Shown piece by piece: positions 1,882 through 52,281 of a stretch of DNA of 64,000 bases. This stretch comes from Actinomycetota bacterium (GTDB lineage: Bacteria > Actinomycetota > UBA4738 > HRBIN12). Where the stretch lies: positions 838,913-902,912 of the forward strand of contig BPGL01000001.1 in assembly GCA_026003015.1 (NCBI GenBank). Reading direction: 5' to 3'. The translations under genes and the position numbers were made by a program. The notes beneath the pieces are model-generated. The model searched no databases. It had not been told where the DNA came from and was given only the letters and a program-made list of their open reading frames with translations. Numbering within the stretch: the stretch's first letter is position 1; every line of letters starts with the position of its first letter.

Positions 1882-4005
1882 TCAGGCGGCCCGCAGGGCC
1901 TGCAGCGCCTCCTGGAGGGTCGCGACCGGGCGGACGGGGACCCCGTCGGCCTCGGCGACCCCGTCGGCCTGCCGGGGGACGAGCACGAGGTCCACGGCGG
2001 CCGCGCGCGCCGACGCCAGCTTGCCGGCGAGGCCACCGACCGGGCCAACCGTCCCCTGGAGATCGACCGTGCCGGTCGCGGCCAGCGTCCGGCCGGCCGC
2101 CAGGTCCTCCGGCCCGAGCAGGTCGGCGATGAGCAGCGCGTACGCGAGCCCCGCCGAGGGGCCGCCGACCGATCGGTCTTCGAAGGCCACCTCGAACGGC
2201 AGGTCCACGGCCAGATCACGGGTCTCGGCCGCCACGCCGATCCCGGTGAACGACTCGAGCCCCTGCTGCAGCCGGGCGCTTCGCACCATCACCTCGATCC
2301 GGGAGCCGAGGCGCTCGACGTCAAGCCGGAACATCGTCCCCGCGGGCCGCTGCCCGAACAGCCGGCGAAGGTCGGTCGCGAGCCGCACGGCCTGCCCGTC
2401 GACCGCCACGATCACGTCGCCGGGCTCCAGGGCGCGATCGGCGGGCGAGCCGGGCAGGAGCTGCACCACGCGGGCTCCCGTTCCGTCGACGCCGACCTCG
2501 TAGCCGGCCGCCCGTGCCGCCGCGGCCGCGGCCACGAGCTGGCTCTCGCGGAACTGCGCCTCGAGCTCCCGGGCGGCGCGCCCCGGATCGGGCCCGGGCG
2601 GAACGATGGCCGACAACGGCACGACGTCGCGGTCGGGATCGAGGAAGGCGAGGAAGGTCACGAGCGCGTTGCGCTGCTCGACCGAAACCGGGACCGCGAG
2701 GTAGCGGCCCCGGATCGGCGTGGTCTCCACGCCCCGGATGGTGACGTCGCGCGTGATGTCGATCGGAGGTGCCGGGGACACGACCGCGAGCGGAGGTCGG
2801 TACAGGACGCCGGCGGCGAGCACGAGCACGGCGGCGACCGCGACCCACACGCCGACGCCGACGCGCCGGGCTGGCACCGCCACCGGCGCGGGCTGGAGGC
2901 TCGCGACCTCGACGAGGCGGGCCAGGTCCGAGCGCGACACGATGCCCACGACCCGCCCGTCGTCGACGACCACGAAGCGTCCGGCCGGCTCGGCGTCTTG
3001 CTCCATGACCCGGGCGAGGTCGTCGTCCGGGCGGAGCGTCGGGACGGCCTCCGCGGGGGCCATCACCTGCGCCACGGTCGTGCGGGCTCGCTCCGCCGGC
3101 GGCACGGACCCCGCCATCCGGACCGACACCAGGCCCACGAGGCGCCCGTCGTCGACCACCGGGTAGGTCGAGTGGCCGCCGGCTCGGCTCGCCTCGTCGA
3201 GGAAGCGGTCCACCGTCGTCGACGGGGCCATCGTCGCGGGGTCAGCCGTCATGAGGTCGCGGACCCGCCGACCGCCCAGGGCGCGTTGCGCGATCGCCGC
3301 GGCGGCCTCACCCCCGGCGGCCTGGGCCAGGAACCAACCGATGAACACGAGCCACAGACCACCGAGGCCTGCGCCGGTCACGAACCCGAGGACCCCGAGC
3401 GCGATCAGCACCGTCCCGAAGGCCCGCCCGACGCGCGCGGCCTGCACCGTGGCCTCCTCGGCGCTGCCCAGGCGTCGCCAGAGCCACGCATGCAGGATCC
3501 GCCCTCCGTCCAGCGGCAGCGCTGGGACGAGGTTGAACGCCGCGAGGATCCCGTTGATCCTCGCGAGGTAGCCGAGCACCTGCAGCACCGCCACGTCGAG
3601 ACCCACGCGGTCCCCCACCGCCCACAAGGCCCAGAAGGCTACGGCGAGCCCCAAGGAGATCGCCGGCCCCACGGCGGTCATGCGGAACGACGCCCCCGGC
3701 GTCGGAGCGCGGCCCTTGAACGTCGCGACCCCTCCGAGCAGCCACAGCGTGATGCCCTCGATCTGCACCCCCTCGCGCACCCCGACGAGCGCGTGCCCGA
3801 GCTCGTGGACGAGGACGGATCCGAAGAACAGCGCCGCCGTGGCGAGCGCCATCGCCAGATAGGTGCCCGAGGCCAGACCAGGGGCGGCGACCGGGTAGAA
3901 CGCCGTGTACAGGGCCCACGTGATGAGGGCGAAGATCAGCAGCCACGACCAGCTCACCCCGATCGGGATGCCGCGCACCCGCGCCACGGTGAGATCGCTA
4001 CGCAC
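1882..4005 (-). CDS. Multi-domain membrane protease: M50 site-2-type protease + two CBS domains + TM + PDZ + Lon-type (S16) Ser/Lys protease domain
   Basis: GTG start at 4005; HELGH and NLVPALPLDGGR (M50), two CBS-like repeats (RVRDLMTADPATMAPSTT..., TVAQVMAPAEAVPTLRPDD...), hydrophobic segment, PDZ (VVQLLPGSPADRALEPGDVIVAVDG), S16 Ser motif SVGGPSAGLAYAL and Lys in GGLAGKLASARAAAVDLVLVP. Confidence 0.85.
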   Translation of the reverse strand: MRSDLTVARVRGIPIGVSWSWLLIFALITWALYTAFYPVAAPGLASGTYLAMALATAALFFGSVLVHELGHALVGVREGVQIEGITLWLLGGVATFKGRAPTPGASFRMTAVGPAISLGLAVAFWALWAVGDRVGLDVAVLQVLGYLARINGILAAFNLVPALPLDGGRILHAWLWRRLGSAEEATVQAARVGRAFGTVLIALGVLGFVTGAGLGGLWLVFIGWFLAQAAGGEAAAAIAQRALGGRRVRDLMTADPATMAPSTTVDRFLDEASRAGGHSTYPVVDDGRLVGLVSVRMAGSVPPAERARTTVAQVMAPAEAVPTLRPDDDLARVMEQDAEPAGRFVVVDDGRVVGIVSRSDLARLVEVASLQPAPVAVPARRVGVGVWVAVAAVLVLAAGVLYRPPLAVVSPAPPIDITRDVTIRGVETTPIRGRYLAVPVSVEQRNALVTFLAFLDPDRDVVPLSAIVPPGPDPGRAARELEAQFRESQLVAAAAAARAAGYEVGVDGTGARVVQLLPGSPADRALEPGDVIVAVDGQAVRLATDLRRLFGQRPAGTMFRLDVERLGSRIEVMVRSARLQQGLESFTGIGVAAETRDLAVDLPFEVAFEDRSVGGPSAGLAYALLIADLLGPEDLAAGRTLAATGTVDLQGTVGPVGGLAGKLASARAAAVDLVLVPRQADGVAEADGVPVRPVATLQEALQALRAA

Positions 4006-4151
4006 CCCGCTCCTCCTCGGCCGCCCTCGGCCCCTCCTGAGGCCACCACCGGCGGTCCGTCTCGTCCCTGGACCCCCATGGTGGCAGACGCGCGCGAGGA
4101 CGGCAGGCCCCGATGGCTGCCCGCGCACCCGGGAGCTGTCAGGCTTGACCC

Positions 4152-4954: not shown

Positions 4955-5407
4955 TCAGGACCCCGCGTGGACCGCGCTCGCGGCCCCGCGCCCCCACCAC
5001 ATCGCCTGGGCGAGGGAGCGCAGGAGGATCTCGGCCGAGGCGAGGTTCGTGGCCAGCGGGACGCCGTGGATGTCGCAGACCTTCAGCAGCGCCTGGATGT
5101 CGGGCTCGTGGGGATGGGCCGTGAGGGGATCGCGCAGGAACACGACGGCATCGACCTCGCCGGCCACGATCCGGGCACCGATCTCGAGGTCGCCGCCCTC
5201 GGGACCGGAGCGCACGCACTCCACCGCGAGCCCCAGCTCGTCGACGAGTTGGCGTCCCGTGTGCCCCGTAGCGAGGAGCCGGAGGTTGGCCAGGGTCGCG
5301 CGGTAGCGCTCGGCGAGCCTGAGGAGGTCCTCCTTCTTCGCGTCGTGGGCCACGAGCGCGAGCACCGCCCGCTGCCCCTCGCCGTGGGGGATGCCGACCG
5401 CTCCCAT
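4955..5407 (-). CDS. mgsA: Methylglyoxal synthase
   Basis: LVAHDAKKEDLL, LLATGHTGRQL, RSGPEGGDLEIGARI, VVFLRDPLTAHPHEPDIQALLKVCDIHGVPLATNLASAE. Confidence 0.93.
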   Translation of the reverse strand: MGAVGIPHGEGQRAVLALVAHDAKKEDLLRLAERYRATLANLRLLATGHTGRQLVDELGLAVECVRSGPEGGDLEIGARIVAGEVDAVVFLRDPLTAHPHEPDIQALLKVCDIHGVPLATNLASAEILLRSLAQAMWWGRGAASAVHAGS

Positions 5408-5568
5408 ACCGCGCGCCCCAGAGCCTACGAAGGAGCCTCGAGCTCACGGCGTCGTTCGGGCGACGCCTCCGTGAACGCTCGCGGTCGCCGGTCGGACACC
5501 GGCGTGGCACGGGGACGCGGGGGGCGTAGGCTCCCTGAACGCCGGCTCCTCCTGGCCGGCCCGACCCA

Positions 5569-5652
5569 GCGAGAGTGGCGGAACCGGAAGACGCGCCGGA
5601 TTTAGGATCCGGTGGCCGCAAGGCCGTGGGGGTTCGAATCCCCCCTCTCGCA
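5569..5652 (+). tRNA. tRNA-Leu (anticodon TAG)
   Basis: Acceptor GCGAGAG/CTCTCGC, anticodon stem-loop CCGGA-TTTAGGA-TCCGG, long variable arm GGCCGCAAGGCC, T-arm GGGGGTTCGAATCCCCC. Confidence 0.95.
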
Positions 5653-5680
5653 CCGGCGCCGCGCCGATCGGGTCCGGTCG

Positions 5681-6715
5681 CTACGGGACGATGACGGCTC
5701 GGCCCTCGAGCGATCCCTCGCGCATGCGCTGGTACGCCGCGGTGGCCTCCGACAGCGGGAATCGGTGCGTCTGGATGACGAGCTTGCCGAGGCGAGCCAG
5801 CTCGACCACCTCCATGAGCTCGGTCACGCTGCCCCAGTAGGTCGTGGCGACGGAGCACTCGTAGGGCAGAGCGAAGAAGCTGAACTCGAGGCGCCCGCCG
5901 CCCAGACCGACCACGGTCAGGTGGCCGTTCACCGAGGCCACCTTGGCCCCCAGCGCCAAGGTGGGGTCCGAGCCCACGAGGTCCAGCACGACCTCGGCCC
6001 CGCGACCCCCGGTGTACCCCCTGATCGTTCCGACGGCCTCGTCGTCGCTGGGCAGGGCGAGATCGGCCCCCAGCCGGCGCGCGAGATCGAGCTTGGCCTC
6101 GGCGAGATCGACGGCGACGACCCGAGCGGGCGACAGGGCCTTGACGAGCTGGATCGCGGCGTGGCCGAGCCCCCCCACCCCGATCACGACCACCGTCGAT
6201 CCCGGACCCAGGAGGTGCAGGGAGCGCTTGATGGCGTGGTAGGGAGTCAGGCCCGCGTCCGCGAGCGGCGCGGCCTCAACCGGGTCCAGATCGCCGATGG
6301 GAACGAGCCAGCGGGCTCGCGGCACCAGCATGTACTCGGCCATCCCGCCGTCTCGTCCGAGGCCGCCGCCCGCCGCCCCGAGCTCGCTCGCGTGTTCGCA
6401 GTAGTTCTCCGATCCCAGCCGACAGGTCCGACACCGCCCATCCCCCCACGGACCGTAGACGAGGACCGCGTCGCCCTCGCGCAGACCGTCGACCCCGGAT
6501 CCGATCGCGTGCACCCACCCGGCCGTCTCGTGGCCGAGGGTGAACGGCAGCTTCCAGTCCAGCAACCCCGGCGGCCACTCCATCACGTGGAGGTCGGAAT
6601 GGCAGGCGCCCGCGCCCCCCACCTTGATCACGACCTCGCCGGGCCCGGGCTCCGGCTCGGGCACGTCCACCAACTCGGGACCCTGCTGCCAAGCGGTGAG
6701 CTGAAGCGCCTTCAT
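5681..6715 (-). CDS. Zinc-dependent medium-chain alcohol dehydrogenase
   Basis: ATG at 6715 (MKALQLTAW); GACHSDLHVME, LGHETAGWV, CRTCRLGSENYCEH, VVVIGVGGLGHAAIQL. Confidence 0.88.
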   Translation of the reverse strand: MKALQLTAWQQGPELVDVPEPEPGPGEVVIKVGGAGACHSDLHVMEWPPGLLDWKLPFTLGHETAGWVHAIGSGVDGLREGDAVLVYGPWGDGRCRTCRLGSENYCEHASELGAAGGGLGRDGGMAEYMLVPRARWLVPIGDLDPVEAAPLADAGLTPYHAIKRSLHLLGPGSTVVVIGVGGLGHAAIQLVKALSPARVVAVDLAEAKLDLARRLGADLALPSDDEAVGTIRGYTGGRGAEVVLDLVGSDPTLALGAKVASVNGHLTVVGLGGGRLEFSFFALPYECSVATTYWGSVTELMEVVELARLGKLVIQTHRFPLSEATAAYQRMREGSLEGRAVIVP

Positions 6716-39633: not shown

Positions 39634-39981
39634 GGTGGAGGTGGCGGGAATCGAACCCGCGTCTCCGGGCGACCGACCGGGGCTTCTCCGGGCGCAGCCG
39701 GTGGTGAGGTCTCGCCTCGGGGCTCCCACCGGCGGAGCTCCCCTCGGCCAGCCCGGGTTCGATGTCCGCCGGCGGCCCCCGGGCGGAGCCGTCGGCGTGA
39801 GCCTGCTGATGACGCTCGACCCCCGATCGCAGGCGCACGGGGCGAGCGGCTACCTAGAGGTTAGGCAGCGAGCGCGTACTCGTCGTTGGCGCTTGTTGGT
39901 GTCCGGCGTTTTACGAGACTCCGGGATCTCGGCCCGCTTCCCCCGGACGGCAACCGTCCGGATCGAAGCCAGTACACCCCC
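39634..39981 (-). ncRNA. ssrA: tmRNA (transfer-messenger RNA), tag ANDEYALAA
   Basis: 5' GGGGGTGTACTGGCTTCGATCCGG..., tag ORF GCC AAC GAC GAG TAC GCG CTC GCT GCC TAA, 3' GCGGGTTCGATTCCCGCCACCTCCACC; acceptor pairing GGGGGTG/CACCTCC; smpB is next upstream. Confidence 0.93.
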
Positions 39982-51311: not shown

Positions 51312-51534
51312 CCGATCGCCCCCCTCAATGCCGGAACGGGCCCCCGATCCGGCTGACCTGGTCTTTGCCCCCACACCCGCCTGCCGGGGCGGTCGCAGGC
51401 CCGGCGGACCGGACCCACTCGCGCCCTCTCCCGGCGAGCCGGGCCCGCCGGGGCAGGACTTACCTCTAAACCGCGCCATGCTCGACGACGAACGGTCGTC
51501 TTACGTGGGTCGTTTCGCCCGCGGCTGGCATCGA

Positions 51535-52281
51535 CTACCGGGGAGGTTCCCCGGGCAACCACAGACCCGGACGAGGGCCCCCTCGAGCATAGGCATCGCC
51601 GCGGGCGATCCGCAACGCCTCGGCCGGCAGCGAGCGCGCTGCGACGCCGAGGACGACCGCGTGGGCGCCGGCGGCGCGGAGCGCCTCTGCGCAGGCCGCG
51701 GCGGTCGCCCCGGTCGTCAGGACGTCGTCGACGAGCAGGACGCGGCGGGGCGCGGGGGCGGTCGGCTCGAACGCCCCCCGCATCGCCCGTCGCCGATCGG
51801 CCGCGCCGCGGCGCGCCTGGGGGCCGGGGTCCCCACACCGGCGAACGAGGCCGCGGACCTCGAGGCCGCGCGCACGGGCCACGGCCCCGGCCAGCACGCG
51901 CGCCTGGTCGTAGCCGCGGGCCGCCAGACGCCGATGCGCAAGGGGCACCCACGTGACAACGTCGACCGGCGGCAGATCGAGGGCGGCGACCGCCGCGCCG
52001 AGCACCGGCCCGACCTCGCGCCACCCGCCGAACTTGAGACGGCGGATGGCGGCGGCGATCGGCCCGGTGTAGGCGAAGGCCGACCGCGCGCGAGCGAGGA
52101 CGGGGGCCGGGCACGCCTCGCAGCTCCCCCGGGGCTCGGCCGAGGGCATCCCGCAGCGGGCGCACCAGGGCGGCTCGAGCACGACGAGCTGGCGGACGCA
52201 CCCCGGGCAGAGCGGCCAGGGTCCGCCCCGACATCCCGCGCAGCGGCGAGGGAAGACGGCCTTGAGCGCTCGAGCGAGCAC
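51535..52281 (-). CDS. comF: ComF-family phosphoribosyltransferase
   Basis: GTG at 52281; CAGCRGGPWPLCPGC, WCARCGMPSAEPRGSCEACP, VLLVDDVLTTGATAAACAEALRAAGA. Confidence 0.9.
   Translation of the reverse strand: MLARALKAVFPRRCAGCRGGPWPLCPGCVRQLVVLEPPWCARCGMPSAEPRGSCEACPAPVLARARSAFAYTGPIAAAIRRLKFGGWREVGPVLGAAVAALDLPPVDVVTWVPLAHRRLAARGYDQARVLAGAVARARGLEVRGLVRRCGDPGPQARRGAADRRRAMRGAFEPTAPAPRRVLLVDDVLTTGATAAACAEALRAAGAHAVVLGVAARSLPAEALRIARGDAYARGGPRPGLWLPGEPPR

What the first reader, a model, noticed from the sequence alone, without database searches (positions are those of the whole stretch)
1882..4005. One polypeptide appears to combine two membrane proteases: M50 site-2 protease + 2xCBS + YlbL/DdcP-like PDZ-Lon(S16)
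Seen: one uninterrupted 707-codon frame carries HELGH and PALPLDGG (M50 intramembrane metalloprotease), two CBS-like repeats, a further TM, a YlbL-like region (FLDPDRDVVPLSAIVPPG...ELEAQFRESQLVAAAAAARAAGYEV), a PDZ segment and an intact S16 Ser/Lys pair (GGPSAG, GGLAGK). Established: M50-CBS proteins and PDZ-Lon (YlbL/DdcP) proteins are widespread as separate proteins, and B. subtilis DdcP helps degrade the SOS division inhibitor YneA. Inference: the fusion would put an extracytoplasmic PDZ-guided Ser/Lys protease, an intramembrane protease and a nucleotide-sensing module in one chain, a possible self-contained regulated-proteolysis device. I do not know this architecture as a described family.
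Basis: partly seen in the sequence, partly recalled or inferred. Interest (0 to 1): 0.82.

Follow-up and report, generated by a model that had tools for sequence, protein, structure and literature searches.

The report
Two membrane proteases in one chain
A group of uncultured Actinomycetota make one protein that joins an in-membrane protease, a cytoplasmic nucleotide-sensor domain and an outside-facing serine protease, and relatives keep the two proteases as neighbouring genes, which suggests the two cuts work together on the same membrane proteins.

Summary
In detail: window 1882-4005 on the minus strand is one open 707-aa gene with M50 (HELGH, PALPLDGG), two CBS domains, a seventh TM, a YlbL-type region, PDZ and an S16 domain with its Ser617/Lys662 pair. 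It is not an assembly accident. Full-length homologues (45-52% identity, no stops) occur in 13 other genomes of the same phylum, Actinomycetota (16 loci in all, one cut off by a contig end), and every catalytic residue is invariant. Trees give one fusion origin. The closest relatives of the fused PDZ-Lon half are not ordinary YlbL proteins. They form a clade in 17 further genomes whose gene lies directly behind a separate M50 gene, and those M50 genes come from a different M50 lineage (p-AU 9e-5). So the same type of PDZ-Lon protease was coupled to an M50 protease at least twice, once as a gene pair and once as a fusion. I know of no described family with this architecture and found none in the papers searched. 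Best explanation: a two-site protease for single-pass membrane proteins, with PDZ-Lon cutting outside, M50 cutting in the membrane and the CBS pair gating from the cytoplasm. Substrate, order of cuts and nucleotide are inferred, not shown.

The parts
1882..4005 (-). Gene for the 707-aa M50-CBS-CBS-TM-PDZ-S16 fusion protein
   Evidence: Open frame; Pfam domains; full-length homologues
4012..4017 (-). Probable ribosome-binding site AGGAGG, 6 nt before the GTG start
   Evidence: Read directly
3286..4005 (-). M50 site-2 protease membrane domain (aa 1-240)
   Evidence: Pfam PF02163 1.2e-19; AF2 pLDDT about 95 and best PDB match 3b4r mjS2P, E 1.6e-11, TMt 0.77
3793..3807 (-). HELGH zinc motif (aa 67-71)
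   Evidence: H67, E68, H71 invariant in 15 of 15 fusions that cover it
3502..3534 (-). NLVPALPLDGG third zinc ligand motif (aa 158-168)
   Evidence: N158, P161, D166, G167 invariant in 15 of 15
2908..3270 (-). Tandem CBS pair (aa 246-366); CBS2 holds S/T-x-x-D (S357, D360) in all 16 fusions
   Evidence: Pfam PF00571 8e-18, two stretches; closest solved CBS pair from an S2P is 5g5x, nucleotide-bound, TMt 0.88; motif read from alignment
2797..2856 (-). Seventh transmembrane helix (aa 384-403), K/R on its N side, almost none on its C side
   Evidence: Hydropathy and charge table for 16 members; helix 382-401 in model
2491..2796 (-). YlbL-type extracytoplasmic region before the PDZ (aa 404-505)
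   Evidence: NCBIfam NF041438 match 388-679; alignment with standalone PDZ-Lon proteins
2284..2490 (-). PDZ domain (aa 506-574)
   Evidence: Pfam PDZ_6/PDZ_2/PDZ; profile matches solved YlbL PDZ 2kl1, 2kjp
1897..2226 (-). S16 (Lon-type) serine protease domain (aa 594-703)
   Evidence: Pfam Lon_C 1.5e-7; profile matches solved Lon protease domains
2155..2157 (-). Catalytic Ser617 of GGPSAG
   Evidence: Invariant in 16 of 16
2020..2022 (-). Catalytic Lys662
   Evidence: Invariant in 16 of 16

Best explanation
A two-site membrane protease in one chain. The M50 core sits in the membrane with its CBS pair in the cytoplasm; a seventh TM carries the chain across so that the PDZ and S16 Ser/Lys protease face outward. 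The PDZ-S16 part binds and shortens the outside part of single-pass membrane proteins; the M50 part, which can accept only substrates with little left outside, then cuts the remaining TM segment; the CBS pair tunes the M50 step to an adenine nucleotide. Shown here: domains, invariant catalytic residues, conservation as one chain, a separate M50 + PDZ-S16 gene pairing. Inferred: shared substrate, order of cuts, nucleotide control, membrane sidedness.
For: All four domain types above Pfam cut-offs in the window and in 5 other fusions scanned. Catalytic residues invariant across 15-16 loci at 42-52% identity. M50 halves form one clade (support 97-98) and PDZ-Lon halves one clade (100/100), with the same inner pairings. 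The sister clade of the fused PDZ-Lon (99/95; joint clade 100/98) has its gene directly behind an M50 gene in 17 genomes, whereas about 36 other PDZ-Lon loci, nearly all outside that clade, have no M50 in the fetched flanks. The partner M50s are not one clade with the fused ones (p-AU 9.4e-5). Charge pattern at TM7 fits inside-to-outside crossing. Precedents: SpoIVFB (M50-CBS) is activated by the PDZ serine proteases SpoIVB and CtpB (PMC11486902); subfamily 3 S2Ps lack an outside PDZ of their own (PMC6242693); YlbL Ser/Lys activity clears the single-pass inhibitor YneA (PMC6051672).
Against: No conserved substrate or anti-sigma gene lies beside the fusion. The own genome also keeps separate M50-CBS and PDZ-Lon genes, so the fused protein is not the only carrier of either activity. 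Only 2 of 27 genomes of the window's class have it, so it is dispensable. No confident structure of the PDZ-S16 half was obtained. One relative of the fused PDZ-Lon (L190, genome G032) stands alone without an M50 neighbour.
Confidence: 0.5

Rival explanations
1. SpoIVFB-like activation: the PDZ-S16 part does not cut the substrate but removes an inhibitor (a SpoIVFA/BofA-like partner) or a blocking segment from the M50 part, so the fusion is a protease with a built-in activator.
For: In B. subtilis two PDZ serine proteases activate an M50-CBS protease by cutting its inhibitor (PMC11486902, PMC6242693). Same division of labour, now in one chain.
Against: No conserved candidate inhibitor gene near fusions.
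Confidence: 0.2
2. Loose partnership: two general membrane quality-control proteases made in equal amounts and kept together, without a shared substrate or ordered cuts.
For: Both families act on several membrane proteins (own knowledge); the fusion is patchy within families.
Against: The pairing was made with two different M50 lineages but always with the same PDZ-Lon subfamily, which is more than chance neighbourhood would give.
Confidence: 0.22
3. Chimaeric contig or frame error joining two genes.
For: The window is from a draft genome of 4 contigs, 90.5% complete.
Against: Same uninterrupted architecture in 13 other genomes of several families at 42-52% identity.
Confidence: 0.01

Closest known systems
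S2P/M50 subfamily 3 (mjS2P, SpoIVFB)
   Same: Six-TM M50 core with HExxH and NxxPxxxxDG, followed by cytoplasmic CBS; best structure matches include 3b4r and 8vjl
   Different: Those end after the CBS and have no outside PDZ or second protease (PMC6242693); here a TM, PDZ and S16 follow
YlbL/DdcP and SepM PDZ-S16 proteases
   Same: TM, YlbL-type region, PDZ, ATPase-free S16 domain with Ser/Lys pair; residues 388-679 match NF041438
   Different: Those begin with their own short N-terminal anchor; here the anchor is the seventh TM of an M50-CBS protein; below the NF041438 cut-off
RseP/RasP-type S2P (subfamily 1)
   Same: M50 protease with an extracytoplasmic PDZ in the same chain
   Different: There the PDZ is inserted in the M50 core and there is no S16 domain or CBS; here PDZ is C-terminal with its own protease
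SpoIVB/CtpB + SpoIVFB pathway
   Same: PDZ serine protease outside acting together with an M50-CBS protease
   Different: Separate proteins made in two compartments; SpoIVB is S55 and CtpB S41, not S16

Membership tests
M50 site-2 protease subfamily 3 | HExxH and NxxPxxxxDG motifs | tested here: met
M50 site-2 protease subfamily 3 | Six-TM core of mjS2P fold | tested here: met
   AF2 model and Foldseek match 3b4r TMt 0.77
M50 site-2 protease subfamily 3 | C-terminal CBS domain(s) | tested here: met
   Two CBS stretches; 5g5x/5g5r S2P CBS pair match
M50 site-2 protease subfamily 3 | No extracytoplasmic PDZ in the chain | tested here: not met
   PDZ at 506-574; definition from PMC6242693
YlbL/DdcP/SepM PDZ-S16 protease | TM + PDZ + S16 order with Ser/Lys pair, no AAA+ domain | tested here: met
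   Ser/Lys pair of YlbL in PMC6051672
YlbL/DdcP/SepM PDZ-S16 protease | NCBIfam NF041438 equivalog cut-off (200 bits) | tested here: not met
   83 bits; the genome's own standalone PDZ-Lon also falls short at 107 bits
YlbL/DdcP/SepM PDZ-S16 protease | Standalone protein with short N-terminal anchor | tested here: not met
   Fused behind M50-CBS in 16 loci
RseP-type S2P (subfamily 1) | PDZ inserted inside the M50 core | tested here: not met
   PDZ lies at 506-574, after the CBS pair
Regulated intramembrane proteolysis | Outside cut precedes and permits the intramembrane cut of one substrate | not testable with these tools
   Needs biochemistry

The most novel reading that the evidence does not exclude
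A complete regulated-intramembrane-proteolysis machine in one polypeptide: the outside (site-1) cut, the in-membrane (site-2) cut and a cytoplasmic nucleotide gate all in one chain, descended from a PDZ-S16 subfamily that is dedicated to working with M50 proteases and was joined to them twice.
Probability: 0.35. Interest if true: 0.85.

Novelty: new variant of a known kind. Interest (0 to 1): 0.62.

Why it matters
It gives a gene-fusion and gene-pair prediction that YlbL-type PDZ-S16 proteases, whose substrate recognition is unclear and whose TM-less form was inactive in vitro (PMC6051672), can work together with M50 proteases. It also offers a single protein in which two-step membrane proteolysis and the debated role of CBS domains in S2Ps could be tested with point mutations.

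Tried and rejected
Assembly or frame artefact: rejected by homologues in 13 other genomes. Conserved neighbour genes around the fusion: none beyond near relatives in one genus, so no substrate by neighbourhood. An ECF sigma gene near one gene pair (L192 152-1096) looked like a RIP operon, but the gene between is divergent, so I dropped it. Fusion outside Actinomycetota: none among 350 genomes of the Chloroflexota MAG's phylum at E 1e-90; at 1e-75 the same phylum gives M50-CBS only; none in the 80 named loci. Viral contigs: no relative of the PDZ-Lon half. Literature: two surveys of serine-protease and PDZ architectures and keyword searches showed no M50-S16 fusion; these are not exhaustive, and UniProt/InterPro architectures could not be searched.

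Full report
OBSERVATION. Window 1882-4005, minus strand, is a single 707-aa open frame starting at GTG 4005, with AGGAGG at 4017-4012. Pfam finds Peptidase_M50 (1.2e-19), two CBS copies (8e-18), PDZ (7e-10) and Lon_C (1.5e-7), all above curated cut-offs. NCBIfam's SepM/YlbL-type S16 model matches residues 388-679 (1.6e-23), so the whole YlbL-type protein including its TM is present, though below that model's equivalog cut-off. PDB sequence matches agree: mjS2P for the core, an archaeal S2P CBS pair, DegP-type PDZ, Lon S16; a profile of the C-terminal half also matches the solved YlbL PDZ domains 2kl1 and 2kjp.

IS IT REAL. In the phylum-wide search (396 genomes drawn evenly), 14 genomes including the window's own hold a fusion at E <= 1e-100, 16 loci in all, two copies each in G179 and G257. 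Identity is 42-52% and no frame has a stop; one locus (G140) is cut by a contig end. By class: 2 of 27 genomes in the window's class, 10 of 24 in the class of G179, 2 of 3 in the class of G032. The alignment runs through the CBS-TM-YlbL junction in all members. H67, E68, H71, N158, P161, D166 and G167 are invariant in the 15 that cover them, and S617 and K662 in all 16. A chimaeric contig is excluded.

WHICH ORGANISM. The window genome is a 2.2 Mb draft, 90.5% complete. It also has a separate M50-CBS gene (C1:1395702) and a separate PDZ-Lon gene (C1:25823).

ORIGIN. M50-CBS halves of fusions form one clade among 59 other M50 rows (98), and PDZ-Lon halves one clade (100/100), which also holds one lone PDZ-Lon, L190, from a genome that has a fusion too. 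Inner pairings agree between the two halves (window + L140; L151 + L152; L144 + L147; the g99 group). This fits one fusion event followed by inheritance and loss or transfer.

THE GENE PAIR. The sister clade of the fused PDZ-Lon (99/95; joint clade 100/98) consists of PDZ-Lon genes that lie directly behind an M50 gene on the same strand, in 17 genomes of families f12, f69, f47 and f41. In L199 the M50 frame (5016-6347) and the PDZ-Lon start (5013) are two bases apart. The one exception in that clade, L214, ends at its contig edge. In L199 the M50 neighbour has a Pfam CBS match; in L195 it does not reach the threshold, so I call the partners M50, most of them aligning over the CBS region. About 36 other PDZ-Lon loci, including the window genome's own standalone one, have no M50 in the fetched flanks. 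The partner M50s fall in a different M50 clade from the fused M50s, and holding them together is rejected (p-AU 9.4e-5; long branches are a caveat). So one PDZ-Lon subfamily was coupled to M50 proteases of two lineages, as neighbours and as a fusion. This is the strongest functional evidence here. Catalytic motifs are present in nearly all of these pairs by simple pattern search; a few patterns failed in L195, L223, L227, L228 and L230 and were not examined further.

TOPOLOGY AND STRUCTURE. AlphaFold with 67 M50-CBS relatives models residues 1-370 at pLDDT mostly above 90 and a helix at 382-401. Top PDB matches are mjS2P (3b4r, TMt 0.77), the nucleotide-bound CBS pair of an archaeal S2P (5g5x, TMt 0.88) and SpoIVFB (8vjl). 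CBS is cytoplasmic in SpoIVFB (PMC11486902, PMC6242693). TM7 has 1-7 K/R in the 15 residues before it and 0-1 after it in all 16 members, which fits passage from inside to outside and puts PDZ-S16 where YlbL is thought to act (PMC6051672). CBS2 keeps S/T-x-x-D in all 16 (read), the usual ribose-binding motif of adenosyl-binding CBS domains (own knowledge). The PDZ-S16 half has no usable model.

HOW IT MOST LIKELY WORKS. Shown: parts, conservation, coupling. Inferred: PDZ-S16 cuts or trims the outside of single-pass proteins, M50 cuts the stub, CBS gates. The inference rests on known biology: SpoIVB and CtpB, PDZ serine proteases, switch on the M50-CBS protease SpoIVFB by cutting SpoIVFA (PMC11486902); subfamily 3 S2Ps lack an outside PDZ (PMC6242693); YlbL needs its Ser/Lys pair to clear YneA, and its TM-less form was inactive in vitro (PMC6051672). 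The fusion supplies a subfamily 3 S2P with the outside module it lacks. I give the two-site model 0.5, a built-in activator model 0.2, loose partnership 0.22.

NOVELTY. Each half belongs to a known kind; the combination was not found in the surveys and searches I could run. The PDZ survey lists PDZ-Lon and PDZ-M50 (RseP) as separate families. It is a new variant of known kinds, not a new kind. Limits: open-access papers only, no UniProt/InterPro, and genome searches that covered mainly two phyla.

Noticed in passing
window 51344-51575 (-): raiA structured RNA, 138 bits against a gathering score of 101; not examined further.
   Followed up: no
window 39634-39981 (-): tmRNA with tag ANDEYALAA.
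   Followed up: no
L192 1446-2630 (-), L202 1224-2432 (-), L199 6142-7500 (+): A conserved gene of about 390-450 codons, read divergently from the M50 + PDZ-Lon gene pair; from memory it resembles bacterial eRF1-like proteins, not tested. A possible functional hint for the pair.
   Followed up: partly
L190 12696-13715 (+), genome G032: A lone PDZ-Lon gene that falls inside the fusion clade and reads DLGPSAG instead of GGPSAG; perhaps split off from a fusion, in a genome that also has an intact fusion.
   Followed up: partly
G179 (L142, L145) and G257 (L139, L150): Two diverged fusion copies per genome in genus g99, suggesting duplication and specialisation.
   Followed up: no
G199: fusion L152, gene pair L230: One genome carries both the fused form and the separate neighbouring M50 + PDZ-Lon pair, so the two forms are not simple replacements.
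   Followed up: no
G052 contigs C46 and C821: Short pieces 42-68% identical to the fusion, split between contigs and frames, in a 960-contig draft; could be a decayed or contaminant fusion gene.
   Followed up: no
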